Shown one piece after another: positions 1 to 42,969 of a stretch of 42,969 nt of DNA. Numbering within the stretch: the stretch's first letter is position 1; each line of letters begins with the position of its first letter. The notes beneath the pieces are model-generated. The model saw nothing but the letters and a program-made list of their open reading frames with translations. It was not told the DNA's origin and searched no databases. The position numbers and the translations under genes are program-made. This DNA comes from a virus, in IMG/VR virus record IMGVR_UViG_3300045741_000200, positions 1 through 42,969 of that record; one strand, given 5' to 3'.

Positions 1-89
1 CCCTGCCCGCCTCTCCCCGCGCGGTCCTCGACCAAGATCAACTCACGGAAAACGGCCGGCCAGCCTCCACCGATTTAGTCGACTTTCTC
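1..89. other. Left genome end, putative cos left arm
   Basis: No gene is seen. The first 25 bases are strongly C-rich, matching the G-rich right end of the window, and the 11-mer CCAAGATCAAC at 32-42 recurs at 42906-42916 on the other side of the presumed junction. Terminase genes follow directly and an HNH gene ends the window, so these are probably the physical ends of a cos phage. The exact overhang cannot be read from one strand. Confidence 0.4.
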
Positions 90-113
90 AACCCGTTGCG
101 CCGCAACGGTTTC
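90..113. repeat. cos-proximal palindromic repeat, copy L1
   Basis: The core TTGCGCCGCAA (96-106) is an inverted repeat around one base, flanked by AACCCG on the left and CGGTTTC on the right. It belongs to the same family as copies at 129-155 and at 42755, 42804 and 42852 near the right end. It lies in non-coding DNA, so codon use cannot explain it. Confidence 0.75.
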
Positions 114-128
114 AGCGCAGCGGATGAC

Positions 129-155
129 GAAACCCGTTGCAGCGCAACAGGTTTC
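129..155. repeat. cos-proximal palindromic repeat, copy L2
   Basis: This is the best-formed copy: left arm GAAACCCGTTG, centre CAGCG, right arm CAACAGGTTTC, a 27-bp near-perfect dyad. Its core starts 41 bp after that of copy L1. Together with the preceding GATGAC, its left half is a 17-mer found again, exactly, inside two genes (1585-1601 and 10972-10988). Protein binding, for example by terminase or a repressor, is inference. Confidence 0.8.
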
Positions 156-172
156 GAGAGTGGTGACGACTG

Positions 173-568
173 ATGGTGCAAGCGACGTTCGCCACGATGG
201 TGCCAGGCAGTGAAGGTGAAATGACTTTCCGCGTGGCTGCCATTGATGTTCCCAACATGTCACTCACGCTTGAACTTGTTGCGCTTGGTGTTGTGCTTGG
301 TACGGCGACCATCGATCTTGCGAATAACGTTGGCACGCTTGAGTTTTCGCAGCCTCTCGCAACGGCCGGTGTCAACATCGTGCGGCAGGTATTCGCCCAT
401 GGGGATCTCATTATCGGTCCCGATCGCACCATCGTGATGAGTCATGGCAGTGACCCCAGTAGTGGCAACGTGTTCCTGTCTGATGATTTCAACGTGCAGG
501 CACCGGGGATGTTCTATCGCAAGGTTGGGCACATCGATGCTGCATCTGTTCTGACAAGCGAGACGTGA
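173..568 (+). CDS. Hypothetical protein upstream of terminase
   Basis: 131 aa, function not recognised. The sequence is rich in beta-prone, hydrophobic stretches (about residues 25-60), with no signal peptide, membrane helix or cysteine motif. An in-frame stop at 164 leaves ATG 173 as the first good start, without an obvious Shine-Dalgarno. One base separates its stop from the ATG of the small-terminase candidate, so it heads the packaging/head operon. Position suggests a packaging or head-related protein, but this is only context. Confidence 0.65.
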   Translation: MVQATFATMVPGSEGEMTFRVAAIDVPNMSLTLELVALGVVLGTATIDLANNVGTLEFSQPLATAGVNIVRQVFAHGDLIIGPDRTIVMSHGSDPSSGNVFLSDDFNVQAPGMFYRKVGHIDAASVLTSET

Positions 569-569
569 G

Positions 570-854
570 ATGCACACTGTCATTCATCACAGCGGCGAGG
601 ATGAGCGCACGATTGTCGAGCATTACCGCGACAGGCTTGCAGAGGCTGGACGACTCAACACCCCTGAGGGTGCGCACGTCATGACGTTGGTGCACTTGCT
701 GCATCACTTGCAGCGCAACGACATTACTGCCGGTGCTGCTGCGCTCAGTAAGGAACTCCGCGATTCCATGACCTTGGCGCTCAAGAATGCGCAGGGCACG
801 GACAGCGTTGACATGCTGATGGCTAGGAGACGTGCGCGAATCACTGGCGCATAA
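570..854 (+). CDS. terS: Putative terminase small subunit
   Basis: 94 aa, charged and mostly alpha-helical, ending in a basic tail (MARRRARITGA). Size, helical character, the middle segment LSKELRDSMTLAL and the position immediately before the large subunit fit the short small-terminase family common in actinophages, in which a conserved ASxLSREL-like helix precedes a basic end. TerS recognises cos DNA and loads TerL. The 3' end overlaps terL by 23 bp. Homology is recalled, not searched, and there is no clear N-terminal HTH. Confidence 0.6.
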   Translation: MHTVIHHSGEDERTIVEHYRDRLAEAGRLNTPEGAHVMTLVHLLHHLQRNDITAGAAALSKELRDSMTLALKNAQGTDSVDMLMARRRARITGA

Positions 855-2304
855 GTCTGAACTCGTTGCGCCGCAATACTTGTGGGTACCGGATCACGTA
901 TCCACGTGCGGCACGGAAGCGATTGAACTTGCTGAGCAATGTGGCATCACGCTTGACCCCGAACAGAAACTAGCCATTAACGCCATCATGGCGGAAGACA
1001 GTGCGGGGCAATGGGTTTCGCTTGAGGCATGCGTGATCGAGCCACGACAGAACGGCAAGACAGGCGGCATCGTGCTGCCGGTGGTGTTGGCTGATGTGTT
1101 CATCCTCGGTAGCGGACTGATTGTGTGGACATCGCACCGGTTCCGTACCTCAGAGGAATCGTTCCGTGAGTTGGTGCAAGTCATTCAAGGCAACCCCGAC
1201 CTTGACCGACGCATCAAGCGCATCAGCAATGAGAACGGCTCAGAGGGCATTGAGTTCATCAACGGGTCACGTGTCGATTTCCTGGCGCGCAGCAAGGGTT
1301 CCGGCCGAGGGTTGACCGGTGACCGCGTGGTGTTGGATGAGGCATTCGACCTGTCTGCGGCTGAGATGGGTTCACTGTTGCCGACGCTCAGCGCGCGACC
1401 CAACCCGCAGGTCATCTATGCCAGCAGTGCGGGGCAGGAACACAGCGACGTGCTGCGCAGCATCAGGGATCGCGGACGGGCCGGTAATGATCCGTCATTG
1501 ACCTACCTTGAGTGGTGTGCGCCACCGGGGCAGTGTGGCACCACTGCATGCACGCATGCGCTGCACTCACCTCGCTGCGTGCTCGATGACGAAACCCGTT
1601 GGCAGCAAGCCAATCCCGCAATGGGTCGGCGCATCAGTGTGTCATTCATTCGCGCTGAGCGTCGTGCCATGGCAGCCGCACCGGATGAGTTCGCACGTGA
1701 GCGGCTTGGTTGGTGGGATGATCCGGTGGGCATGGTTCCCATCTCTGCTAAGGGTTTCGCTGCACTCATCCTTGAGCGTGACAAGCCCAACGGGACACCG
1801 GTGTTTTTCATCAACGTGGCACCGGGGATGCGCAGTGCCAGCATCGGTGTTGCGGTCCGTCAAGATGACATCACGCATGTTGAATTGGCCGATCATCGCA
1901 CCGGCACCGATTGGTTGCCGCAGCGCTGCAAGGAACTCGCAGACAACACCGATGAGGATGCAGTCTTTACCGCATGGTCAGCCGGTGCGGTCGGCAGCAT
2001 GCTGCCTGACCTTGAGGCTGTAGGCATCAAGCCTGAGTTGTTCAGCACTCATGACATGGGCCGTGCATGCGGGCACTTGCAGAAAGCGGTGCGGGACAAG
2101 ACACTCACGCACTCTGGCGATCCCTTGCTACTTATGGCATTGGCGGGCGCCGCAGCGCGCGACATGGGCGAGGGGTTGTGGCTATGGGATCGCAAGAAAT
2201 CCACGGCTGACATCTCGCCATTGTGGGCACTGACCGGTGCCCTATGGGGTAACGCCATCTATGGTCCCGATCGTTCACCCGTACCGCAATTCTATATAGC
2301 GTAA
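832..2304 (+). CDS. terL: Terminase large subunit (packaging ATPase/nuclease)
   Basis: 490 aa. N-terminal ATPase: Walker A RQNGKT at about 72-77 and Walker B VVLDEA at about 166-171, followed by the SSAGQ coupling segment near 198-202. The C-terminal RNase H-like nuclease region is recognisable by ELADHRTG (about 351-358) and STADISPLWALTGALWG (ADISP near 459-463). In relatives the first strand carries an Asp (DVxPD-like); here it reads FFINVAPG with Asn 328. The usual VLDPxGPA segment reads FTAWSAGA, with Trp in place of Asp. So two expected metal-binding acids seem absent, which is odd. GTG start at 832 is preceded by AGGAG at 825-829. The gene drives DNA translocation into the prohead and cos cutting. 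Confidence 0.9.
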   Translation: MRESLAHKSELVAPQYLWVPDHVSTCGTEAIELAEQCGITLDPEQKLAINAIMAEDSAGQWVSLEACVIEPRQNGKTGGIVLPVVLADVFILGSGLIVWTSHRFRTSEESFRELVQVIQGNPDLDRRIKRISNENGSEGIEFINGSRVDFLARSKGSGRGLTGDRVVLDEAFDLSAAEMGSLLPTLSARPNPQVIYASSAGQEHSDVLRSIRDRGRAGNDPSLTYLEWCAPPGQCGTTACTHALHSPRCVLDDETRWQQANPAMGRRISVSFIRAERRAMAAAPDEFARERLGWWDDPVGMVPISAKGFAALILERDKPNGTPVFFINVAPGMRSASIGVAVRQDDITHVELADHRTGTDWLPQRCKELADNTDEDAVFTAWSAGAVGSMLPDLEAVGIKPELFSTHDMGRACGHLQKAVRDKTLTHSGDPLLLMALAGAAARDMGEGLWLWDRKKSTADISPLWALTGALWGNAIYGPDRSPVPQFYIA

Positions 2305-33396: not shown

Positions 33397-33696
33397 ATGC
33401 AGTACGTGGTTCATCGCGAGGCATTGGCAGAACTCATGCAGCGCAAGGGGTTCAACACCCCGCGACTCGCAGCGGCAGCCGGTGTCTCAGCATCGTTCGT
33501 CAACTACCTACTCAACGGACAACGCGTCATCATCAGCGCAGCCGTCCGTGAGGGGTTGGCCGATGCACTCACGGTCTGTCCCGATGACATCGGGACAGAC
33601 ACCGATGTGATTGGTCTGATGTTCAGCACGCTTGCCATGCGCCGCAACCCTGCCGGAAACACCATGCCCCACAAGGGATGTGAGCGTGCGTCATGA
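33397..33696 (+). CDS. XRE-family HTH regulator, Cro-like candidate
   Basis: 99 aa from ATG 33397. HTH at about residues 10-45: LAELMQRKGFNTPRLAAAAGVSASFVNYLLNGQRV. The C-terminal part has only short polar stretches. As first gene of the long rightward early operon, next to the regulatory region, it is a natural Cro-like (lytic) regulator opposite to the XRE protein at 21724. Upstream in-frame codons exist, but this ATG starts right at the conserved domain. The stop overlaps the next ATG. Confidence 0.75.
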   Translation: MQYVVHREALAELMQRKGFNTPRLAAAAGVSASFVNYLLNGQRVIISAAVREGLADALTVCPDDIGTDTDVIGLMFSTLAMRRNPAGNTMPHKGCERAS

Positions 33697-33830
33697 CCCT
33701 GCCTGCGCAACGACACGTTGACAGGCGGCCGGGCGCTACGCGTGGTTTCTGGCGCGGCATGACCTACGCACTGTTGTTCGAGGCTGCCATCGGCAGCGTC
33801 ATCCTGATCGGTTGGTGGTTCCTGCGATGA
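33693..33830 (+). CDS. Single-pass mini membrane protein
   Basis: 45 aa: basic start QRHVDRRPGATRGFWRG then a hydrophobic helix YALLFEAAIGSVILIGWWFL (about 24-43). ATGA overlap with both neighbours shows that it belongs to the translation chain. Role unknown. Confidence 0.6.
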   Translation: MTLPAQRHVDRRPGATRGFWRGMTYALLFEAAIGSVILIGWWFLR

Positions 33831-34678
33831 CTACTGCTGCAACGGATCTAGACACATGCCTGCCGGAACCCCTTGCAGCACAAGAGATGCAACTAGGTGC
33901 TGACCCTGACCTGATTGACAGGGAACTCATCGACATCATCGTGCGTGCGATCCGGCAGGCACCACGCAGCGTGCAGCGTGCGATTGGACCGAGCGAGATG
34001 GGGTCCGCATGTCTGCGCAAGATCGGTTACCGGCTCAGCGACGTTGAGCCGTTGAACATCGGTGCGGCATGGCTGCCCCTAGTGGGCACCGGGGTGCACG
34101 CCATGGTTGCCGACATGTTCGCAGCACACAACCTTGCCAGTGGCTTTACTCGCTACCTGATCGAGCAACGCGTGACGGTCGGAACCGTTGCAGGACAACC
34201 GATCGAGGGCACGTGCGACTGCTACGACAGAGTGACGGCGACTGTCATTGACTGGAAATGTGTTGGCCTCTCAACGTTGCGCAAGGTCAAGCGTGATGGC
34301 CTACCGCGCAACTACCGGATGCAAGCGCACCTCTATGGGCGTGGGTACCGCAACGCAGGCCATCACGTTGAGCGTGTGGCTGTGATGTTCCTACCCCGCA
34401 ACGCTGAGTTGCGTGACCGCATCTTTATCACCGAGCCGTATGACGAATCCGTTGCGCTAGAAGCACTTGCGATAGCCAACGCTGCGGCTAGCGGACTGGC
34501 GGAACTCGGCAACGCGTTGCTGCCGCTGCTGCCTGCCGCTGAGGACTACTGCGAGTCGTGCCCATGGTTCAACCCGTTCAGCCGCGATGTCACGCAGGCA
34601 TGTCCCGGGCCGGACGGCAAGACATTGCTACCTGAGGGCAGCGGCGACAATGACCCCTCATTGGCTGGAATCATCTAG
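33827..34678 (+). CDS. Cas4/RecB-type exonuclease (PD-(D/E)XK)
   Basis: 283 aa from ATG 33827. Cys 62 (SACLRK), His 91, then the nuclease core IEGTCDCYDRVTATVIDWKCVG (about 126-147, with Asp 142 and Lys 144), and YRMQAHLYGRGY with Gln 166. Late cysteines C241-x2-C244 and C258 together with C62 make a four-Cys arrangement like the iron-sulfur cluster of Cas4/AddB-type nucleases. Probably degrades DNA ends in recombination-based replication; no crispr array is present. ATGA overlap upstream; followed by the ssDNA-binding candidate. Confidence 0.85.
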   Translation: MTTAATDLDTCLPEPLAAQEMQLGADPDLIDRELIDIIVRAIRQAPRSVQRAIGPSEMGSACLRKIGYRLSDVEPLNIGAAWLPLVGTGVHAMVADMFAAHNLASGFTRYLIEQRVTVGTVAGQPIEGTCDCYDRVTATVIDWKCVGLSTLRKVKRDGLPRNYRMQAHLYGRGYRNAGHHVERVAVMFLPRNAELRDRIFITEPYDESVALEALAIANAAASGLAELGNALLPLLPAAEDYCESCPWFNPFSRDVTQACPGPDGKTLLPEGSGDNDPSLAGII

Positions 34679-34689
34679 GAGAGAGCGAC
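34678..34689 (+). promoter_or_regulatory. Start-associated element
   Basis: AGGAGAGAGCGAC directly before ATG 34690. It combines a classical AGGAG with the GAGAGCGA motif. Confidence 0.65.
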
Positions 34690-35433
34690 ATGACGACATA
34701 CCCCGGTAACATGGCACCCACATTCCAGGCACCCCCTGCCACTGCATCCGTTGCGCCGCAGTCCTATGCGCCACCCTCGGTGGAGGATGTGCTAGCCACT
34801 GCAGGCAAGGCACCGCAGGCTGCATCGTTCGGTGAGCATGCCCCGAGCACCATCGGTGGCAAGGTGCTGCGCAAGCCCATGTCTTATCACGCCAGGGAAT
34901 ACGACCCGTCCGGCCGGGGGATGGGTGCGCCCAAGTTCACCACCGATGGGCGGCCGGTATGGGGCATCAGTGTCGATGTGCAGACAGCGATGCGTGAAGG
35001 TCCCGAGGACAACGGGGTACGGCGCATGTACCTCGAAAAGCCGCGACAGTTGGCCGCAGTGCGTGAAGCGCTTGCCCCGTATGAACTTCCCGGGGTGGAG
35101 GTGGGCGGCATCATTGAGGTGACATGGACAGGTACCGAGCCTGGCCGTGGATCGATCGAGGCCAACACCTACAGCGCGCGCTACATCACTGCCGCGCAGG
35201 CTGCCAGCATGCCCCATGGTGGCGTGCCGCAGCCTGTCTACACCACGCCCACTGTTGGCAACATCGGCAACGGTCAGCCACCCCCCGCGTGGGCACAGCC
35301 GACCGCACAGCCTCAGATTGCCGTGCAGCCTGGCGCGCAGGCCGATCCGGCCAAGGTGGTCACTGCCACCACTGCGGCAGCGCTTGCCAATGCCGGTGTT
35401 GACCTGAGCGGTTACACCATCATTCCCGGTTAA
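34690..35433 (+). CDS. Putative ssDNA-binding / recombination accessory protein
   Basis: 247 aa. Pro-rich N-terminal end, a central beta-rich domain at about 55-165 (STIGGKVLRKPMSYHAREYDPSGRGMG... PVWGISVDVQTAMREGPEDNGVRRMYLEKPRQLAAVREALA... VGGIIEVTWTGTEPGRGSIEANTYSARYI), and a flexible Pro/Gln-rich tail. The central part resembles an OB-fold-like actinophage family often placed next to Cas4-type exonucleases, which suggests ssDNA binding. The pair exonuclease plus binding protein would serve recombination. No catalytic motif. Confidence 0.6.
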   Translation: MTTYPGNMAPTFQAPPATASVAPQSYAPPSVEDVLATAGKAPQAASFGEHAPSTIGGKVLRKPMSYHAREYDPSGRGMGAPKFTTDGRPVWGISVDVQTAMREGPEDNGVRRMYLEKPRQLAAVREALAPYELPGVEVGGIIEVTWTGTEPGRGSIEANTYSARYITAAQAASMPHGGVPQPVYTTPTVGNIGNGQPPPAWAQPTAQPQIAVQPGAQADPAKVVTATTAAALANAGVDLSGYTIIPG

Positions 35434-35470
35434 AGCCTTGCGGGGCAGGTGATTCGGTAGGCATCCCGCG

Positions 35471-35749
35471 ATGACTGCACACCTCAATGATGCACTGTGG
35501 GAGACGCTGACACCGCTACCGTTCATCGGGCAGCGTGACCGACCACGATGCGCGGAAGTGTTGTGGCGCAGCGTGTTCCAAGAGGCAGGGGACTACGGCA
35601 GCGGTAAGACTGTCGCCCTTGCCAAGCAAGTCTGTGCTCAGTGTCCATTGCGGGATGCCTGCCGTGACTATGCCATCACCACTCGACAACGGTGGGGTGT
35701 GTGGGGCGGAAAGTTGATGGGCTATGAACAACGCGAACGCAAGCGCTAG
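35471..35749 (+). CDS. WhiB-like iron-sulfur transcription factor
   Basis: 92 aa with all Wbl marks: Cys 27, then C55-x2-C58-x5-C64 (QVCAQCPLRDAC), GVWGG at 76-80 and a basic tail QRERKR. Wbl proteins are restricted to Actinobacteria and their phages, bind a [4Fe-4S] cluster and usually act with the primary sigma factor. Here it lies in the early operon and may regulate host genes or the superinfection response (phage Wbl proteins such as TM4 WhiBTM4 are known). No clear Shine-Dalgarno; 26 bases overlap the next gene. Confidence 0.92.
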   Translation: MTAHLNDALWETLTPLPFIGQRDRPRCAEVLWRSVFQEAGDYGSGKTVALAKQVCAQCPLRDACRDYAITTRQRWGVWGGKLMGYEQRERKR

Positions 35750-35930
35750 CACGCTTTCCGCTGAGTGGTGGCCCGATGTGTTGGGGCCGATGATCGAGGC
35801 ACGATGCGCGGTGCTGCGCTGCAACGCCATCGTGCACACTCATCAAGTGTTCGTGCACCACATCACCCGCGAGATGGTCGGCATTCCCTTGTGCCGCAAC
35901 CATTACGGTCTAGTGGACGTGATGAGATGA
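35724..35930 (+). CDS. Small zinc-binding protein
   Basis: 68 aa overlapping the WhiB gene by 26 bp. Contains ARCAVLRCNAIVHTHQVFVHHITREMVGIPLCRNHYGL: two Cys, several His, then C-x2-H. Such a C-x5-C...C-x2-H site suggests zinc. Function unknown. Confidence 0.6.
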   Translation: MNNANASASTLSAEWWPDVLGPMIEARCAVLRCNAIVHTHQVFVHHITREMVGIPLCRNHYGLVDVMR

Positions 35931-36163
35931 CGGATGCTGTACCGATCGACGGCACGCAGAATGCGCGTGCATACCTTGCGCTGCAACATGTTCAGCAGCA
36001 TGGCCGCTACTGCCGCAGGTTTCAAGGCAACGTCACCACCAAGCGATGCCCTTGCGGTAAAAGCCGTGAAGTCTACTGCGCTGAATGCAAGTGGTTGCTC
36101 ATCTCGATGACGGACGTGGGCAACCAACCGTGCGAATGCCTACAGCCTGGCACGCGGATCTGA
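35927..36163 (+). CDS. Small protein with cysteine pairs
   Basis: 78 aa from ATG 35927, which overlaps the previous stop (ATGA). Two groups of cysteines (YCRRF...RCPCGKSREVYCAECKW and PCECLQPG) form a possible double zinc site. A longer reading to 35765 overlaps the gene before and lacks a ribosome site. Unknown function. Confidence 0.6.
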   Translation: MTDAVPIDGTQNARAYLALQHVQQHGRYCRRFQGNVTTKRCPCGKSREVYCAECKWLLISMTDVGNQPCECLQPGTRI

Positions 36164-36178
36164 GAGAGGGTGAGCAGG

Positions 36179-36565
36179 ATGACTCACGTTATGGATGTGC
36201 CTGATTCAATCTGGGAGTGGGGTCAGAGGCATTTCAACACAAGCAATCCCGCACCACACTTGCGCAACATGGTCATACAGAGCATGGTGCAACTACTGAC
36301 GGTCCCTGCCGATGAGGTTACTACTGAGATTGATGAAGTCATCGCCGAACCTGTTGCTATGCGGACGTTCGAGCAACGACGCAACGCATTAGGTATCACG
36401 TTCGTGCCGGTCGACCCTGACAGGCAAGCGTCATACGTGTGGGGTATGGAGATGTTCGGTGGCGAGGAAGAACTACTGACATTCCTTGAGGAAAAGGCTG
36501 CCGATGGGATCAACAACCCCATGTTGTTCCTGATTGCGTTGTGGGCCAAGCGGTCCCGAGGTTGA
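36179..36565 (+). CDS. Hypothetical protein
   Basis: 128 aa from ATG 36179, with the element CTGAGAGAGGGTGAGCAGG before it. Helical N-terminal DNA-binding-like part (WEWGQRHFNTSNPAPHLRNMVIQSMVQLLT), acidic second half (GGEEELLTFLEEKAADGI). Not recognised. Confidence 0.62.
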   Translation: MTHVMDVPDSIWEWGQRHFNTSNPAPHLRNMVIQSMVQLLTVPADEVTTEIDEVIAEPVAMRTFEQRRNALGITFVPVDPDRQASYVWGMEMFGGEEELLTFLEEKAADGINNPMLFLIALWAKRSRG

Positions 36566-36566
36566 C

Positions 36567-36881
36567 ATGCCACAACCTAAGCCTGACAGGCATGTTGACC
36601 CTATCGGCACCGATGCGATGTTCGACGTTGAGCCGTTACGCCATGCCAAGCAACGCACCAAGTCTGTACCGAGCGCAGCGCAAGGCAATTGCCCGCGATG
36701 CCTGCGAGGCAAGACAGGTCTGATGCCGCAAGGTCGGCACCTTGTCTGGCGTCAACACAACTACACCACATGGTCAGGGGCGCGGATGCCTTGCCCCGCA
36801 AGCGGTATCGCAGTGTGTGCACTGCCTGAGGTTAACCCGCTAGATGGACTGTTCACAGTGAGGTGCATGCACGATGACTAG
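36567..36881 (+). CDS. Zinc-ribbon-like protein
   Basis: 104 aa from ATG 36567, two bases after the previous gene's stop. Contains CPRCLRGKTGLMPQGRHLVWRQHNYTTWSGARMPCPASGIAVC, a Cys-pair plus later Cys/His that suggests a zinc ribbon. One of many such small proteins in this operon. Confidence 0.6.
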   Translation: MPQPKPDRHVDPIGTDAMFDVEPLRHAKQRTKSVPSAAQGNCPRCLRGKTGLMPQGRHLVWRQHNYTTWSGARMPCPASGIAVCALPEVNPLDGLFTVRCMHDD

Positions 36882-37365
36882 CCAAGCCTGCGGCATGGCG
36901 ACCGCTGAGGTTCCCAACCCGCTACTGCGAGCGCATGCCACCGGGGGGTTTAGTCTCACCCTCGGCACCACCCACATTGCAGCCATGGTCTATGTGGACT
37001 ACACCATACGCAGCAAGGTGCCAAGCGTGATGGACTTGATAAACGAGCCTGACCGCTCATTCCTACTCACCTCATCGTTGCCGCACAAGGCACCATGGAG
37101 CCATTACGTGCCAGGCATTCGCGGTGTCTTGGGTCGCGGGTTGCTGATCGAGTCTGCGGCATGGCTGCAGGCACGGCGCAAGCATGAGATGCGCGAGGCT
37201 GCATTGGGTCGCAATATTGCGATGCACTTTCCTACCTGGCGGATGTACCGGTTCACCAAGGCCGGTGTGATGGCACGTGGACTGCTGCAGGAATGCGGTG
37301 TGTGGCAAGAGTTCGCGGAGCAACTTGCCGCGCATCAACGGGCGCAGGTTCGGGGTGTGGCATGA
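36874..37365 (+). CDS. Hypothetical protein
   Basis: 163 aa, start overlaps the previous gene by 8 bp. The centre is helical (VPGIRGVLGRGLLIESAAWLQARRKHEMREAALGRN). No clear motif; the C-terminal part is basic. Unknown; possible DNA-binding by charge. Confidence 0.6.
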   Translation: MTSQACGMATAEVPNPLLRAHATGGFSLTLGTTHIAAMVYVDYTIRSKVPSVMDLINEPDRSFLLTSSLPHKAPWSHYVPGIRGVLGRGLLIESAAWLQARRKHEMREAALGRNIAMHFPTWRMYRFTKAGVMARGLLQECGVWQEFAEQLAAHQRAQVRGVA

Positions 37366-37490
37366 GCATCGACATGGTGGACGACTGGTCCGACCTTGAG
37401 CGGTGGGAGAAACGTGAAGGGTTGTTGGTGTTCGTGCGGACAACCAAGACGTTGGCTATCTGTGTTGATGGGCAATGGGTTGAGTGTTGA
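37362..37490 (+). CDS. Mini-protein
   Basis: 42 aa, MSIDMVDDWSDLERWEKREGLLVFVRTTKTLAICVDGQWVEC. ATGA overlap with the previous gene. Charged helix then a beta strand. No known family. Confidence 0.5.
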   Translation: MSIDMVDDWSDLERWEKREGLLVFVRTTKTLAICVDGQWVEC

Positions 37491-37492
37491 CC

Positions 37493-37609
37493 ATGCCCAC
37501 CGTTGACGTCGCCGATGACGAAACCCCTTGCCCGGTATGCGGTTACGTGGGTCCGAAACCCATGATCTATCGACCCTACTGCAATCAGAGATGTTGGGAA
37601 GCACGATGA
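37493..37609 (+). CDS. Mini zinc-ribbon protein containing a dispersed repeat
   Basis: 38 aa from ATG 37493, two bases after the previous stop: C-x2-C (TPCPVCGYVG) and C-x3-C (YCNQRC), a compact zinc ribbon. The DNA for DDETPC (37514-37530) is a near-copy of the 17-bp dispersed repeat. ATGA overlap with the next gene. Confidence 0.55.
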   Translation: MPTVDVADDETPCPVCGYVGPKPMIYRPYCNQRCWEAR

Positions 37610-37887
37610 CAACGCCACCCATGACCTTGACTGACAGGCAGCGTGCGAGCATCCTGCTCACTCGCGTATTCCTTTACAGCAGTAGGGTTGCGCACCTCCT
37701 GAGGCCACATCACAGCCCTAACGATGGCTATGGACTTGCCTACTGCGGTGCTAGCCCTCAGTGGGGCATGTCGTGGTACGGCACCGGTTCGGATGCGGAA
37801 CAGCACAAGGCTGCAACCCTGGCGCTGTGCAAGCGATGCGTGAAGTACGCACCACCGGAGTGGGTCCCTACATCCGTTGCGGAGTAA
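37606..37887 (+). CDS. Small cysteine-containing protein
   Basis: 93 aa from ATG 37606. The segment VAHLLRPHHSPNDGYGLAYCGASPQW...LALCKRCVKYAPPEW has Cys/His positions like small actinophage zinc proteins whose end reads CxxC. Unknown role. It precedes the primase/helicase gene by three bases. Confidence 0.6.
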   Translation: MTTPPMTLTDRQRASILLTRVFLYSSRVAHLLRPHHSPNDGYGLAYCGASPQWGMSWYGTGSDAEQHKAATLALCKRCVKYAPPEWVPTSVAE

Positions 37888-37890
37888 GGG

Positions 37891-40206
37891 GTGTGCGCGT
37901 TGGTGGTGGTTGGTGATGACCGACCGCTGATGGTGCCTGAGGTAGTGCCTGGCGATGAACCATTAGGCGCAGGTATCAAGTATGGCAACTGTGGTTGGTA
38001 CACCGGACCACTTGCTCACGGCAGCAAGAATCCCGGTAGCGTGCTCGGTAAGGGTTGGGATGCAAGCACATCACGCGACCCACAAGTCATCGCATCATGG
38101 CTTGCAGGGACAGACTATGGCTTGTTTCTGCATGCTGGCCGCAGTGGCGCCATCATCCTCGACATTGACCGACCTGAGTTAGTGCCCGATGTCATCCGGC
38201 ATGCCATCGACACACTCAACCCACCGTTTCAGTCAACGCGCCCGAGCAACCCCGGTAGGGGTCATGCCATCTTTAGGCAGCCGCCCGGCCGCACCATTGG
38301 CAACGGCAATGGTGAATTGGGCCGTGAGTGGGGTGAGGTGCGGGGTAAAAACGGTGTCATCGTTGCATGCCCATCGGTGCACCCTGACCCGTCCGGGCTG
38401 TACCGGTGGGAGAGTTTCGGTCCCGTTCCTGTTCTGCCGCAAGCCATTGCGAACATGTTGCCCGATGCTCATGACTCGGCAGCATCGATCACCGTATCGG
38501 ATGCGGCATTGGCGCAAGCCTTGCAGTCATGGCCTACCGGTGCGCCATGCGCTGCGGTGCAACGCACCTTGAGCCGTTGGCTTGAGGGGTTGGGGATCGG
38601 CAGCAGGCATGATGCTGCGCTGTACGGCTCAAGGGCATTGGCTGTACTGGCCGCAGAGGGGCACCGGGGCGCGTCTGAGGCACTGGCAGCGCTCGGTCAG
38701 GCATTCATCCGGGCAGCCACCTCGCAACCCCCCACAAGGGCACTGAGCGTGGCGTCCGGGGAGTGGGCAGAGATGGTCCGGGGTGCCGTTGCGCTTGCCC
38801 TCCCACTCACAGCGGCACCCCGGCCGGGCGAGGCTACCCCAAGCCTGGCCGATCCCTGCAGGCCACCCATCGTTGAGGGCATCATCGCGCCTCACGATAG
38901 GCAGCCATACCGGCACCTCGACATGCACGGCCGGTTCGCAGGCTACTCGCTCGATGGTGAACGGGTTGATCCCAACATCGTTGTGCCGCAACGGGTTGAG
39001 CGAGATATCTGTGACATCATCGCCAATCCCGACGACCCGCTAGAGAACGTCATGCATCCACAAGAGGATGCACAGTCTGTGGATGTGCTTGATTGGGTTA
39101 TCGCACAAGGCATTCCGCTAGACAAGCATGAGACTGCACGGCAACTAGTGCGCATCAAGGCACGCGACCACGCACGCATGTTGCTGCGCGAGGTTGAGGT
39201 GTCGCAGACGTTCGTGATGCCAACCCCTATGAGCGGCACTGAACTCATTGCATGCGCTGATGATCAGACACGTTGGTTGATCGATGGTCTGATGCCCTAC
39301 GGCGGCAACGTGGTGCTGACTGCACAGTTCAAGACAGGCAAGACAACGACACTCAACCAACTAGCCATGTCGCTTGTGGATGGCGTGCCGTTCCTCGGCC
39401 GGTTCGATGTGATTGAGCGGCAACGCGTTGGCATCCTCAACTATGAAATGACCGATGCGCAGTATGGCCGTTGGCTGCATTCGTTGCCTATCAAGAACAT
39501 TGACAACCTCAAGGTGTTCGGGCTGCGTGGCATGAACGTGCCGCTATGGGTTGACCCCATCATTGAGCGCATGGCGAAACTCATTGCAGCGGAAGGGATC
39601 GAGACACTGATTATCGATCCCTTGGTGCGCGCCATGTCTGGCCTCGATGAGAACAGCAACGCCGATGCGGTCAAGTTGACTGACGGCATCGACAGACTCA
39701 AGGAACTTGCCAAGGTGCCCAACCTCATTGCAGCGCATCACACTGGCAGGGTTGCCATGGATGTTGGTGCTGAAAGGTCGCGCGGCGCAACGCGTTTCGA
39801 TGACTGGCCGGATGCCTTGTGGGTGTTGGTGTCTGGCAAGGGTGACGATGAGGGTGTGCGATTCTTTAGGGCATACGGTCGTGACGTTGATGTGCCTGAG
39901 GGTGCGCTGATGTTCGATTCATTGACGCGTATGTCGGTGCTCGGCAACAACGACGGCCGGGCCGTCCGCAAGGCTGAGGGTGCACGCATTACTGATGGCG
40001 TCATGCAGAACTCAATCATGAGCATCATCAAGGATTCGCCAGGCATCGGCACACGTGGCATCAGGGATGCACTCAAGTTGCGTGGTCATGGTGGCGCAAC
40101 TGCCCGCATCAGTGACCTGATCAATGCCCTTGTCTCGCAAGGCATGGTGACACGCGAGGGTGAACCCCGAACGGGTTATGTCCACTACGCAGCAGGAGCA
40201 GAGTAA
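37891..40206 (+). CDS. Primase-polymerase / RepA-like helicase fusion
   Basis: 771 aa from GTG 37891 (GGAG six bases upstream). N-terminal prim-pol domain: acid pair Asp 91/Asp 93 in GAIILDIDRPE, His 125 in GRGHAIFR, and a GVIVACPSVHPDPSGLYRW end near 160. The middle is a helical linker. The C-terminal RecA-like helicase carries Walker A QFKTGKTTT (about 481-489) and Walker B TLIIDPLVR (about 571-579), then AAHHTGR. A winged-helix-like tail (GIGTRGIRDALKLRGHGGATARISDLINALVSQGM) ends it. It would unwind and prime DNA; no phage DNA polymerase is seen, so the host enzyme must extend. Confidence 0.9.
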   Translation: MCALVVVGDDRPLMVPEVVPGDEPLGAGIKYGNCGWYTGPLAHGSKNPGSVLGKGWDASTSRDPQVIASWLAGTDYGLFLHAGRSGAIILDIDRPELVPDVIRHAIDTLNPPFQSTRPSNPGRGHAIFRQPPGRTIGNGNGELGREWGEVRGKNGVIVACPSVHPDPSGLYRWESFGPVPVLPQAIANMLPDAHDSAASITVSDAALAQALQSWPTGAPCAAVQRTLSRWLEGLGIGSRHDAALYGSRALAVLAAEGHRGASEALAALGQAFIRAATSQPPTRALSVASGEWAEMVRGAVALALPLTAAPRPGEATPSLADPCRPPIVEGIIAPHDRQPYRHLDMHGRFAGYSLDGERVDPNIVVPQRVERDICDIIANPDDPLENVMHPQEDAQSVDVLDWVIAQGIPLDKHETARQLVRIKARDHARMLLREVEVSQTFVMPTPMSGTELIACADDQTRWLIDGLMPYGGNVVLTAQFKTGKTTTLNQLAMSLVDGVPFLGRFDVIERQRVGILNYEMTDAQYGRWLHSLPIKNIDNLKVFGLRGMNVPLWVDPIIERMAKLIAAEGIETLIIDPLVRAMSGLDENSNADAVKLTDGIDRLKELAKVPNLIAAHHTGRVAMDVGAERSRGATRFDDWPDALWVLVSGKGDDEGVRFFRAYGRDVDVPEGALMFDSLTRMSVLGNNDGRAVRKAEGARITDGVMQNSIMSIIKDSPGIGTRGIRDALKLRGHGGATARISDLINALVSQGMVTREGEPRTGYVHYAAGAE

Positions 40207-40407
40207 ATGATCAAGGTAGGTGGTTCTAAGAGTGTGGTTCTCAGTGGTTCTGTGGTTCTGCAATCGGTCCCGGCAGGTGGTTCTGGCGGGGGGTATATGA
40301 ACGAAGTTCATACCCCGCCGGAACCGCCGACCGACGGGAGACCACCCCTCAGAACCAGAACCACCCTCGGCAGCCCGCTGAGTGCGGATGAGCGGACTGA
40401 CCGCTAA
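40207..40407 (+). CDS. Doubtful ORF across the iteron/hairpin patch
   Basis: 66 aa from ATG 40207, directly after the helicase stop. The protein is low-complexity (SVVLSGSVVLQSVPAGGSGGG) because the DNA holds five GTGGTTCT repeats and a long hairpin. No ribosome site, no recognisable motif. More likely non-coding control DNA than a gene. Confidence 0.25.
   Translation: MIKVGGSKSVVLSGSVVLQSVPAGGSGGGYMNEVHTPPEPPTDGRPPLRTRTTLGSPLSADERTDR
40220..40364. repeat. GTGGTTCT iterons, candidate replication origin
   Basis: Five exact copies of GTGGTTCT at 40220, 40234, 40244, 40252 and 40277, and inverted AGAACCA at 40351 and AGAACCAC at 40357. They surround a long hairpin (40276-40328). Location directly after the helicase gene is where plasmid- and phage-type origins often lie, but function is not proven. 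Confidence 0.65.
40276..40328 (+). other. Long bulged hairpin
   Basis: The left arm (40276-40302: GGTGGTTCTGGCGG, then a G-run, then GTATATGAAC) pairs with the right arm (40306-40328: GTTCATACCCCGCC, then GGAACCGCC), about 23 bp with two bulges and several G-T pairs; loop GAA. It could be a terminator, an attenuator or a single-strand initiation structure. Confidence 0.6.
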
Positions 40408-40817
40408 TGCATCCCGACATGAGGGCAATGCTGATCGAGCAAGGCAGCATAGATGCCGATGGGGGTAAGCGGACGGTACAGCGTTGGCAATGCATGCGTT
40501 GCGGCGCACCGATTCTTGCGGGCAGAGATGATGCCAGGCTTGCCGACCTTGCGTTGTGTGATGTGTATGCCCTTGATGCGGTCGGTGAGGTTGCTGCGTT
40601 GTTGGATGGGTTGCGCACCTATGAGATGCACCGTGAGGGTGGTGCATGGGTGATTGACTTTCGGGATCAATGGCGCGTCGCATCACGTCCGGCCGGACGA
40701 ACGCCACGCAATGATGTGTTGGCACAGCACAGGTGTGGACGCGTACCGCAAGGTGTCACATCATCGTCGTTCCCAATCCCTTGCGCCGTAAGGGATTCCG
40801 ATACACCACCATTCTGA
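40407..40817 (+). CDS. Hypothetical zinc-binding protein
   Basis: 136 aa. MHPDMRAMLIEQGSIDADGGKRTVQRWQCMRCGAPILAG, with a Cys-x2-Cys pair near 30 and a later Cys; the centre is helical. The end of the gene contains the palindrome CCCTTGCGCCGTAAGGG (40782-40798), a variant of the repeat family. Start overlaps the doubtful ORF stop by one base. Unknown. Confidence 0.6.
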   Translation: MHPDMRAMLIEQGSIDADGGKRTVQRWQCMRCGAPILAGRDDARLADLALCDVYALDAVGEVAALLDGLRTYEMHREGGAWVIDFRDQWRVASRPAGRTPRNDVLAQHRCGRVPQGVTSSSFPIPCAVRDSDTPPF

Positions 40818-40829
40818 ACAGGGGTCAAC

Positions 40830-41165
40830 ATGCTCGGTGCTATGGATGCCTTAGCGGACAGGCTGCGTCTGTCAGTGTTCGCATGCCTCGATCAAGACAA
40901 CGTGAGTGCAGCAACCGCCATCGTGGTGAGCCATCGTGATGAGGCTGATGCAGCGTTCTGGCAAGACTTGTTGCACGTGAGGATTGTGGAGGTCAGCAAC
41001 GATGAGCACAGCCGCAGTGATCCCGATGACGCCACTGTTGACGTTGCAGCGGGACGTGATGCCGATGACTCTCAACGTGGCGAAACAGTCGACCAAGATG
41101 TGGTTGATTCGTCGCGAGTTGATGGCATGGCGCGCATGGGCAATGGCAGAGGCAAGCGCAAGTGA
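40830..41165 (+). CDS. Hypothetical protein, 3' half overlaps the resolvase gene
   Basis: 111 aa from ATG 40830 (AGGGGT upstream). First 60 residues are ordinary (ADRLRLSVFACLDQDNVSAATAIVVSHRDEADAAFWQDLLHVRIVEV). The rest is acidic and lies in another frame over the first 164 bp of the RusA-like gene, unusual. Its C-terminal tail (DDATVDVAAGRDADDSQRGET) may be dispensable. Confidence 0.5.
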   Translation: MLGAMDALADRLRLSVFACLDQDNVSAATAIVVSHRDEADAAFWQDLLHVRIVEVSNDEHSRSDPDDATVDVAAGRDADDSQRGETVDQDVVDSSRVDGMARMGNGRGKRK

Positions 41166-41406
41166 GGTCACGATTGGTGTTCCTGTTGAGGTATGGGTTG
41201 AGCACTTGCGCCCCAACCGCGCAGGATGGCCCGACACTGGCGCACCCATCCTCGCGGTCAAGGCCATGGTTGATGGCCTTGTTGATGCAGGGGCATTGCC
41301 GAACGATCGGCCGGAAACGGTGCGGTGGTTGCATTTCGCACCACCCATCGTGACGGGTCATCATGGCTTGCGTCTGACGTTGACTGAGGCACGGATTGGG
41401 GCATGA
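41002..41406 (+). CDS. RusA-like Holliday junction resolvase
   Basis: 134 aa from ATG 41002, GGAGG 10 bases upstream. The layout PMTLNVAKQS-...-IRRELMAWR, then RPNRAGWPDTGAPILAVKAMVDGLVDAGALPNDRPETV, follows RusA-type proteins: Asp 78, Lys 87, Asp 91 and Asp 102 are in the usual acid/Lys positions. RusA cuts Holliday junctions, useful in phage recombination and before packaging. The DxDN form is replaced by PDTGAP, so a divergent member. Confidence 0.7.
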   Translation: MSTAAVIPMTPLLTLQRDVMPMTLNVAKQSTKMWLIRRELMAWRAWAMAEASASEVTIGVPVEVWVEHLRPNRAGWPDTGAPILAVKAMVDGLVDAGALPNDRPETVRWLHFAPPIVTGHHGLRLTLTEARIGA

Positions 41407-41413
41407 TCTAGCG

Positions 41414-42220
41414 ATGAGGAAACGCGCTACTCAGCAAGCATGTGCGCACTGCGGTGCTGCATGTCGGGATGCGTTGCTGTGTAACGCATGCACAAGGCAT
41501 CTATGCGAGATGATTGCGGATGCTGAGGTGATGCTTGATGAGTTGGCTATCACAGCAACTCGACAGTCACGCACCATGGCGAAACTTGCAGAGGTGCGCG
41601 GTGGTGCTGAGCAAGCCTTGCCGTTCGATGAGCGAGCGGCAAGGCTTGCACGGCGCATTGAGCAAGTGCTGACGATGGCTGCGGTTTTCATGGGTTGGCC
41701 CGGCAGGGGACGCGTAACCCATTGGCTAGTAAGGCATTCAGACATCATGCGACGGCATGACGTAGGGGTGAAGTTGAGTGATGAGTTGAAACCGTTGCTA
41801 GACAACGCATTGGAGGTCATCGACATTCCGCCGCAGCGTTGGTATGCCGGAGTGTGTGAGGCTGATGCCGACGGAGCATCGTGCATGGCTGACTTGTGGG
41901 GTATTCCTGATGAACTAACGATCACGTGTGCCAAGTGCGGAACGCGTTATGACGTAAGGGAACGCAAGGTCATGTTGATGCGCATGGTTGAGGACAGGCT
42001 TGCAACGGCAAGCGAGATTGCCAAGGCTGTGCACATCATCGACATTCGCGTGACTGATGACATGGTGTGGTCATATGCCAAGCGTGGACGCATTGCGGCC
42101 AGAATGGTGACACCTCAAGGTGATCCGATGTACCGCATTGGCGATGTGCTGAACGTGGTTCGCGAGGCTGCGCAGCGCCGCGCTGAGCGAACCGCTGCCC
42201 GGAAAGTCATCAAGAAATGA
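41414..42220 (+). CDS. Zinc-ribbon/HTH DNA-binding protein
   Basis: 268 aa from ATG 41414. N-terminal zinc ribbon CAHCGAACRDALLCNACTRHL, a helical centre (RQSRTMAKLAEVRGG... PFDERAARLARRIEQVL), a second Cys group (CEADADGASC ... CAKCGTRYDV) and a C-terminal HTH with a MerR-like pattern (TASEIAKAVHI... TDDMVWSYAKRGRIAARM... GDPMYRIGDVLNVV). This order recalls a widespread actinophage/actinobacterial family annotated as HTH DNA-binding. Probably a late-gene or packaging regulator; exact job unknown. Confidence 0.75.
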   Translation: MRKRATQQACAHCGAACRDALLCNACTRHLCEMIADAEVMLDELAITATRQSRTMAKLAEVRGGAEQALPFDERAARLARRIEQVLTMAAVFMGWPGRGRVTHWLVRHSDIMRRHDVGVKLSDELKPLLDNALEVIDIPPQRWYAGVCEADADGASCMADLWGIPDELTITCAKCGTRYDVRERKVMLMRMVEDRLATASEIAKAVHIIDIRVTDDMVWSYAKRGRIAARMVTPQGDPMYRIGDVLNVVREAAQRRAERTAARKVIKK

Positions 42221-42257
42221 TCTTGAAAACTTCGCCCGAAACGTGAGTGTGCCCGGT

Positions 42258-42282
42258 AGCGTGTGGTTGTCTCACCACACGT
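42258..42282 (+). other. Small hairpin
   Basis: CGTGTGGT (42260-42267)/ACCACACG (42274-42281) with a TGTCTC loop. Shares the word GTGTGGTTGTC with the left arm of attP (25031-25041), likely by chance. May form part of the terminator region of the early operon. Confidence 0.4.
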
Positions 42283-42309
42283 GGTTGATGACCAATCCGC
42301 GTAGTCATC

Positions 42310-42350
42310 CGAAACCCCTTGCAGCGCAACACATGCAGCAAGGGGTTTCG
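42310..42350. terminator. Hairpin built from repeat-family arms
   Basis: Perfect 13-bp stem CGAAACCCCTTGC / GCAAGGGGTTTCG with the loop AGCGCAACACATGCA. The stem sequence is itself the repeat half-site; its right arm plus TCAT is the exact reverse complement of 37515-37531. Acts perhaps as the operon terminator; no T-run follows. Confidence 0.6.
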
Positions 42351-42404
42351 TCATGTTCACCCGTGCCCATCCACTCACACAATCCACTCACACAATGACT
42401 AGCC

Positions 42405-42740
42405 ATGTATAACCCTCATGACAAGGCACGTGATACTGCGCAGTATCGGCGCAATCGTGCACGACTCAAGGCCATGCGCATACTTGAGTGCGCTAGATGT
42501 GGTGGCCTCATTGACTATGAGGGTGCGCGATACGTTGAGTATCAAGGCAAGCGCACAGAAAACCCATGGGCATTCGATGCAGGGCACATCGTTGATGTTG
42601 CATTGGGTGGCAGCAATGACATCACTAACCTCCAACCCGAACACGTGCGATGCAGCAGAAAGGCAGGATCATTGCTAGGTCATGCTCGGCGTTGGGGTGT
42701 CAAGAAACCCAACCGTCCCACCACTGCGAATCGGTGGTGA
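42405..42740 (+). CDS. HNH endonuclease next to cos
   Basis: 111 aa. Cys 29-x2-Cys 32 (LECARCGG), AGHIVDVALGGSNDITNLQPEHVRC with His 61, Asn 75, His 80 and Cys 83: a complete HNH motif with zinc-binding cysteines. HNH proteins coded beside cos and terminase act in genome packaging with TerL in HK97-like phages. It probably helps cutting at cos; relevant here as TerL lacks two expected nuclease acids. 185 bases separate it from the HTH gene. Confidence 0.9.
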   Translation: MYNPHDKARDTAQYRRNRARLKAMRILECARCGGLIDYEGARYVEYQGKRTENPWAFDAGHIVDVALGGSNDITNLQPEHVRCSRKAGSLLGHARRWGVKKPNRPTTANRW

Positions 42741-42749
42741 GGATGCGCA

Positions 42750-42770
42750 ACACGTTGCAGCACAACGGTT
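42750..42770. repeat. cos-proximal palindromic repeat, copy R1
   Basis: Core TTGCAGCACAA (42755-42765), flanked by ACACG and CGGTT. Non-coding. First of three copies with cores 49 and 48 bp apart. Confidence 0.75.
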
Positions 42771-42800
42771 CCGCAAGGTTCCCTGTTGCCTATGCTGGAT

Positions 42801-42822
42801 GCCTTGTGCTGCAACGTGTTTC
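42801..42822. repeat. cos-proximal palindromic repeat, copy R2
   Basis: Core TTGTGCTGCAA (42804-42814), then CGTGTTTC. The preceding TGCTGGATGCC is repeated as TGCTGGATACG before the next copy, so R2 and R3 are about 30-bp direct repeats. Confidence 0.8.
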
Positions 42823-42848
42823 GCGCATTGCCGACATTGATGCTGGAT

Positions 42849-42870
42849 ACGTTGTGCCGCAACGGGTTTC
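42849..42870. repeat. cos-proximal palindromic repeat, copy R3
   Basis: Core TTGTGCCGCAA (42852-42862), then CGGGTTTC. The nearest copy to the right end, about 100 bp from it. Confidence 0.8.
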
Positions 42871-42905
42871 CGCATCAGTGCACACCATGACAGGCAGAAT
42901 GCTGC

Positions 42906-42969
42906 CCAAGATCAACAGCACATACCATGGGGGGGGAGGGTATGCGACGGAGGGTGACGGGGGGAGCAC
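42906..42969. other. Right genome end, putative cos right arm
   Basis: CCAAGATCAAC (42906-42916) repeats the left-end 11-mer (32-42). The last 40 bases carry several G runs (eight G at 42930-42937, then GGGTATG, GGAGGGTGACGG, GGGGGG), able to form a quadruplex or a terminase-recognised structure. When joined to the C-rich left end the junction shows an imperfect dyad (GGGGAG-like against CTCTCCCC). The exact cut site is unknown. Confidence 0.4.

What the first reader, a model, noticed from the sequence alone, without database searches (positions are those of the whole stretch)
42741..42969. Array of 24-27 bp palindromes around the cos junction
Five non-coding copies of a TTGYRSYRCAA core palindrome with GAAAC/GTTTC-side arms flank the window ends: cores at 42755, 42804, 42852 on the right and 96, 137 on the left. 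Right-hand spacing is regular (49 and 48 bp), left-hand 41 bp. If the genome is circularised the set brackets cos. It resembles in layout the R sites of lambda cosB, bound by small terminase, but the sequence, palindromic form and two-sided layout are not ones I know. An additional full hairpin of the same family is at 42310-42350.
Basis: partly seen in the sequence, partly recalled or inferred. Interest (0 to 1): 0.82.

Follow-up and report, generated by a model that had tools for sequence, protein, structure and literature searches.

The report
Paired palindromes bracketing a phage cos
At the two ends of this uncultured actinobacterial phage genome lie five copies of a 27-bp palindrome; the same palindrome, usually in pairs on both sides of the DNA-cutting (packaging) site, recurs in at least ten other phages whose packaging enzymes are only distantly related, so it is very probably a previously undescribed type of recognition array for cutting and packaging phage DNA.

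Summary
The five cores are real, at the stated coordinates, and far beyond chance. A weight matrix built only from other phages ranks two of them first and second among all window positions.

The window is almost certainly a whole linear cos genome. Its left end resembles physical ends of cultured actinophages. Its terminase genes lie first and an HNH nuclease gene last.

Motif-only scans of IMG/VR, blind to genes, landed just upstream of terminase large-subunit (TerL) genes in ten contigs. Five contigs that run through cos show sites on both sides, with inner sites 113-120 bp apart. One apparently whole relative (G001, TerL ~30% identical) has six of its seven strong sites at its two ends. 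Where the end is known, the array is centred within about 8 bp of the cut.

The consensus is GAAWNNYGTTGYGSCRCAACRNNWTTC. Opposite positions do not co-vary, so it is a protein-binding DNA palindrome, not an RNA hairpin.

The binder is unknown. Carriers fall in at least five terminase lineages with different small terminases, which argues against small terminase alone and leaves a host factor open.

The 42310-42350 hairpin is probably a terminator. The window and one relative (G002) also carry many degenerate copies inside genes. I judge it a new variant of cos architecture.

The parts
88..114 (.). cos-flanking palindrome, TerL side, inner (centre +101 from left end)
   Evidence: TCAACCCGTTGCGCCGCAACGGTTTCA; core at 96
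129..155 (.). cos-flanking palindrome, TerL side, outer (centre +142); best site of the genome
   Evidence: GAAACCCGTTGCAGCGCAACAGGTTTC; score 34.5 with a matrix from other phages only
42844..42870 (.). cos-flanking palindrome, right side, inner (112 bp from right end)
   Evidence: TGGATACGTTGTGCCGCAACGGGTTTC; second-best site of the genome
42796..42822 (.). cos-flanking palindrome, right side, second (160 bp from right end)
   Evidence: TGGATGCCTTGTGCTGCAACGTGTTTC
42747..42773 (.). cos-flanking palindrome, right side, third (209 bp from right end)
   Evidence: GCAACACGTTGCAGCACAACGGTTCCG
42930..42969 (+). right half of the cos region (G-runs up to the physical end)
   Evidence: contig end; G-runs also seen at cos in L104, L017, L027
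1..25 (+). left half of the cos region, CCCTGCCCGCCTCTCCCC
   Evidence: CTCTCCC 6-11 nt from the left end also in cultured phages Rebel and Kittykat and in contig L129
570..854 (+). small terminase candidate (phrog_6975 C-terminal part only; lacks the Zn-ribbon half)
832..2304 (+). terminase large subunit
   Evidence: phrog_9, E 5e-67
42405..42740 (+). HNH endonuclease, last gene before cos
   Evidence: phrog_338, E 8e-15; same position as right-end genes of Charlie and Eyre
42310..42350 (+). hairpin, probably a transcription terminator, not a cos site
   Evidence: arms 16 nt, -26.2 kcal/mol, z -5.7; exact hairpins of this kind follow genes/tRNAs in bacterial genomes

Best explanation
The palindromes are the recognition part of the cos site: two-sided arrays of 27-bp binding sites, usually paired, for a dimeric or multimeric DNA-binding protein. 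They flank the staggered cut and are roughly symmetric about it. Bound protein on both sides would mark and probably fold the ~115-210 bp between the inner sites, so that terminase (with HNH in phages that have it) nicks at the centre, starts packaging at one side and stops at the next cos in the concatemer. Shown by sequence: cos position, two-sidedness, pairing, protein-site-like conservation, recurrence. Inferred: protein binding, bending or looping, role in cutting. Not determined: which protein binds (small terminase, HNH partner or a host DNA-binding factor).
For: Left-end sequence and gene order match cultured cos phages. Motif scans made without gene information land within about 1 kb upstream of phrog_9-type TerL in L008, L017, L021, L027, L116, L117, L118, L124, L129, and at the start of L119; L104 and L111 were found independently through TerL. 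Read-through of cos with sites on both sides: L104, L017, L124, L116, L027; inner-to-inner 113-120 bp; pair spacing equal on both sides in L124, L116, L027 and G001. G001: strong sites (>=18) at 33, 67 and 46726, 46760, 46818, 46852 of 46,905 bp plus one internal. Array axis minus end junction: window -6 to -8, G001 -2.5, L017 +0.8, L124 -2.5. Conservation of two half-sites with free positions 5-6/22-23 and no co-variation of opposite positions. Pair pattern absent from 397 Actinomycetota genomes.
Against: No binding or cleavage data. About 90% of TerL relatives examined lack this motif near TerL (92 of 101), so it is not a general requirement. The window and G002 carry many further degenerate copies inside genes, which a pure cos function does not explain. 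The window's inner spacing (213 bp) and unequal pair spacing (48-49 vs 41) are atypical. An inverted repeat at the axis is only weakly significant (Fisher p 0.003-0.01, driven by L116). L124's end is assigned by likeness to Atcoo, not by a contig end.
Confidence: 0.72

Rival explanations
1. The sites are operators for transcription of the late (terminase-head) operon or the right-end genes; they lie at cos only because cos sits in the intergenic region upstream of that operon once the genome is circular.
For: Sites precede TerS/TerL in all carriers; two-fold DNA palindromes with partly degenerate arms are typical of repressors and activators. Dispersed copies in the window and G002 recall stoperators (PMC9283540).
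Against: Sites lie on both sides of the cut, centred on it within about 8 bp in the four phages where the end is known, with near-constant 113-120 bp between inner sites in five read-through contigs. In G001 six of seven strong sites are at cos. No sigma-70-like promoter was found in 41900-42969 (the scan does not cover other promoter types).
Confidence: 0.14
2. The sites bind a genome-wide organising, silencing or replication/partition protein (host or phage), and the cos clusters are merely the densest part of a dispersed system.
For: 31 window sites >=12 vs 0.3-0.55 expected; 89 in G002 vs 0.5-1.05, rising toward its right end; coding copies exceed codon-shuffle expectation tenfold.
Against: In G001, G003, G004, G009 and G010 nearly all sites are at cos; constant geometry about the cut.
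Confidence: 0.1
3. They are RNA hairpins, such as transcription terminators.
For: Left-hand copies fold (z -3.1 and -4.4); exact hairpins of similar sequence serve as terminators in bacterial genomes.
Against: Right-hand copies do not fold better than shuffles; opposite positions show no co-variation over 68 sites; no T-tract and no Rfam match.
Confidence: 0.03

Closest known systems
Phage lambda cosB (R3-I1-R2-R1 with IHF)
   Same: Several short protein-binding sites beside the cos cut; a host protein (IHF) helps fold the DNA (PMC4669245).
   Different: R sites lie on one side of cosN, R2 is inverted relative to R3/R1 and they are TerS sites; here sites are individually palindromic, usually paired and on both sides of cos, and the core has no likeness to R sequences known to me.
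HK97 cos (TerS site at +15..+29, HNH gp74)
   Same: Same broad packaging type: phrog_9-type TerL and an HNH nuclease in many carriers; HK97 has a 10-nt 3' overhang (PMC11331095, PMC9410871).
   Different: HK97 TerS uses a single 15-bp site on one side; here there are four to six 27-bp palindromes.
cos regions of cultured actinophages (Charlie, Rebel, Atcoo, StressBall, Eyre)
   Same: Gene order, left-end sequence style, and repeats on both sides of cos.
   Different: Their repeats are CCAGCAAAC (M. smegmatis phages) or GTGCCA palindromes (Eyre); none of 14 cultured genomes searched or held has the TTGYGSCRCAA array at cos.
Stoperators of cluster A mycobacteriophages
   Same: Many copies of one binding site spread over a phage genome (as in the window and G002).
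   Different: Stoperators are asymmetric repressor sites (PMC9283540); these are palindromes and centred on cos.

Membership tests
cos site of an HNH-associated, HK97-like (phrog_9) terminase phage | lies at the physical genome ends | tested here: met
   Left end like Rebel/Kittykat/L129 ends; other contigs end at the corresponding place; terminase genes first, HNH last
cos site of an HNH-associated, HK97-like (phrog_9) terminase phage | TerL of the phrog_9 type next to it | tested here: met
   (E 5e-67); carriers
cos site of an HNH-associated, HK97-like (phrog_9) terminase phage | HNH nuclease gene near cos | tested here: met
   Window 42405-42740; not found in relative G001
cos site of an HNH-associated, HK97-like (phrog_9) terminase phage | cohesive 3' overhang of about 10 nt | not testable with these tools
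   needs virion-end sequencing or ligation
lambda-type cosB | TerS-binding R sites on one side of cosN only | tested here: not met
   Sites on both sides
lambda-type cosB | sites bound by the phage small terminase | not testable with these tools
   TerS type varies among carriers: phrog_6975 with Zn ribbon, phrog_1496, others
intrinsic terminator / RNA hairpin | stem maintained by co-variation, or T tract | tested here: not met
cluster A stoperator | asymmetric site spread over the genome | tested here: not met
   Palindromic; mostly confined to cos in relatives

The most novel reading that the evidence does not exclude
The palindromes are sites for a host-encoded DNA-binding protein that unrelated terminases of phages in the same host range use to set up cos, an actinobacterial counterpart of IHF at lambda cos. 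The cos-flanking motif would then follow the host rather than the terminase: Zn-ribbon TerS phages and phrog_1496 TerS phages each occur with the TTGYGSCRCAA array (L104/L111; L124) and with CCAGCAAAC (Charlie/Rebel; Atcoo/StressBall).
Probability: 0.33. Interest if true: 0.82.

Novelty: new variant of a known kind. Interest (0 to 1): 0.64.

Why it matters
How cos sites of the very common HNH/HK97-type phages of Actinobacteria are recognised appears little studied: HK97 has one characterised site, and I found no paper on repeats flanking actinophage cos. A two-sided palindrome array with fixed geometry, present in at least five terminase lineages, gives a concrete target for finding the cos-recognition protein, marks genome ends in metagenomes from sequence alone, and raises the testable idea that different terminases share a host factor.

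Tried and rejected
RNA hairpin reading (no co-variation; Rfam none). Repeats as a host chromosomal element: exact GAAAC-core-GTTTC hits in GTDB are isolated terminator hairpins next to host genes or tRNAs; pair pattern 0 in 397 Actinomycetota genomes. Stricter palindrome pattern in IMG/VR gave nothing, so arms are loose. Close relatives by DNA or by TerL alone: none. Search for a phage protein shared by all carriers found only TerL. Seeking prophages with the array to learn the host failed. Regular ~2 kb spacing of the in-gene copies in the window's left arm: p 0.06, not claimed. My first symmetry calculation mis-placed one weak L017 site by 11 bp (a spacing I assumed); one search is the corrected version. 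CCAGCAAAC as a universal M. smegmatis cos motif: absent in Olga, Patt, Che8, Brujita, Giles. L131 and L123 carry the motif but more than 1 kb from TerL and are not counted. L025 has palindromes with other arms and L013 a tandem repeat; both set aside.

Full report
WHAT IS THERE. The five cores are at 96, 137, 42755, 42804 and 42852 as stated. Core TTGYRSYRCAA occurs 16 times in the 42,969-bp window against 0.48 in order-1 shuffles. To avoid circularity I built a weight matrix from 39 cos-flanking sites of other phages only: the best two positions in the window are 129-155 and 42844-42870, and all five named sites are in the top 14, where random order-2 genomes have a best score of 9.3 on average and 16.8 at most.

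ARE THE ENDS COS? The record is an IMG/VR linear virus contig. TerL (832-2304), portal, major capsid, tape measure and primase/helicase were identified. The nearest cultured phages by TerL (about 39% identity) are Gordonia phage Eyre and Mycobacterium phages Charlie and Rebel, whose records start about 500 bp upstream of TerL and end at or just after an HNH gene, as the window does. The window's left end CCCTGCCCGCCTCTCCCC resembles ends of Rebel (GTCAGGAATCTCTCCC) and Kittykat (GTGTCCTCTCCC) and contigs L129 and L119. In many TerL relatives the contig itself begins 400-850 bp upstream of TerL. The 42,969-bp contig is therefore very probably a whole genome cut at cos.

THE SAME ARRAY ELSEWHERE. 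Two motif-only scans of 2.9 million viral contigs returned 24 and 22 stretches. In nine contigs (L008, L017, L021, L027, L116, L117, L118, L124, L129) the motif lies within about 1.1 kb upstream of a phrog_9-type TerL, and L119 begins with two sites directly in front of a TerL-position reading frame and a portal gene. L104 and L111 were found independently as TerL relatives and carry the array at the same place. Five contigs run through cos and show sites on both sides: L104, L017, L124, L116, L027. In these the inner sites are 113-120 bp apart. Pair spacing is equal on both sides in L124 and L116 (44/44), L027 (33/33) and G001 (34/34), unequal in L017, L104 and the window. The apparently whole relative G001 (46,905 bp) has strong sites at 33, 67, 46726, 46760, 46818, 46852 and one internal, the layout of the window with about 30% TerL identity. 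Contigs L021 and L008 independently end at the same sequence TTGGCC(A/G)TTTTCTCT.

SYMMETRY. Where the end is known, the four-site axis falls close to the end junction: window -8 bp (inner pair -6), G001 -2.5, L017 +0.8 (inner +3.5), L124 -2.5 (end by likeness to Atcoo). A 3' overhang of about 10 nt, as in HK97 (PMC11331095), would put the centre of the two nicks at about -5; that fits but is inference. A short inverted repeat near the axis is suggestive only (Fisher p 0.003-0.01, mostly L116).

WHAT KIND OF ELEMENT. From 68 sites the consensus is GAAWNNYGTTGYGSCRCAACRNNWTTC. Positions 5-6 and 22-23 carry almost no information, and opposite positions pair no more than their column composition predicts. 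That is the signature of a protein dimer site with two contact blocks per half, not of an RNA stem. The hairpin at 42310-42350 has long near-perfect arms and lies 90 bp after a stop codon; similar hairpins follow genes and tRNAs in bacterial genomes, so I read it as a terminator.

WHO BINDS. TerS is the textbook candidate, but carriers have different TerS types: Zn-ribbon phrog_6975 (L104, L111), the same family without the ribbon (window), phrog_1496 (L017, L124), an unassigned type (L021, G001), an HTH protein (L118), and no separate small-terminase frame evident between array and TerL in L117/L119. In the TerL tree carriers need at least five changes; L124 is sister to Atcoo, and L104/L111 fall beside Eyre, Charlie and Rebel, all of which lack this motif. 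Apart from TerL no protein is shared by the carriers (many contigs are partial). Conversely, cultured M. smegmatis phages of different clusters carry another word, CCAGCAAAC, almost only at their ends: Charlie 2/2, Rebel 3/3, Atcoo 2/2, StressBall 2/2, Amelie 2/3, Samty 1/1, though Che8, Brujita, Giles, Olga and Patt do not. The motif thus does not follow the terminase. A host factor is an attractive but unproven reading; fast-evolving TerS or HNH specificity remains possible.

DISPERSED COPIES. In the window, copies inside genes exceed a codon-shuffle null (16 vs 1.5 at score >=12) and are absent from about 24-33.6 kb. In G002 (67,761 bp, TerL at 2.8 kb) 89 sites rise in density toward the right end, with about 23 copies, many at 40-41 bp pair spacing, in the last 2 kb. 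Other carriers lack this. The meaning is open.

KNOWN SYSTEMS. Lambda cosB has R3-IHF site-R2-R1 in about 120 bp on one side of cosN (PMC4669245). HK97 TerS binds one 15-bp site at +15 to +29, and its HNH protein stimulates cos cutting (PMC11331095, PMC9410871). Literature searches found no description of palindrome arrays around actinophage cos; the library holds open-licence papers only. I file it as a new variant of cos-site architecture, works-like cosB, binder unknown.

Noticed in passing
Charlie, Rebel, Atcoo, StressBall, Amelie, Samty (phages collection): The 9-mer CCAGCAAAC occurs 12 of 13 times within about 250 bp of the genome ends in these M. smegmatis phages of different clusters, and not at the ends of any Gordonia, Arthrobacter or Streptomyces phage searched for it, with one Arthrobacter and one other copy internal.
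   Followed up: partly
window 858-23500 and 33656-41800: Excess of degenerate copies of the palindrome inside genes (16 vs 1.5 expected at score >=12), none between about 24 and 33.6 kb.
   Followed up: partly
L014 7400-10300 (contig IMGVR_UViG_3300019776_000296, 64.4-67.3 kb): Non-coding 2-3 kb at the right end packed with the palindrome in pairs 40-41 bp apart; density rises over the last 12 kb of the contig.
   Followed up: partly
Eyre (L030) first and last 250 bp: GTGCCA/TGGCAC palindromes on both sides of cos, a different sequence in the same layout.
   Followed up: no
window 570-854: The small terminase candidate matches only the C-terminal part of phrog_6975 and lacks the N-terminal Zn ribbon of its relatives.
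   Followed up: partly
window 173-568: Reading frame of 131 aa between cos and TerS, weak match to phrog_16931 only; function unknown.
   Followed up: no
L111 25-41 and L014 7640-7960: These carriers also hold GTTTGCTNGCAAAC-like palindromes or halves near cos, resembling the M. smegmatis CCAGCAAAC word.
   Followed up: no
L025 94-250: Four palindromes CTACAACCGTTGCNGCGCAACGGTTGTAG at a contig start: same inner core, different outer arms.
   Followed up: no
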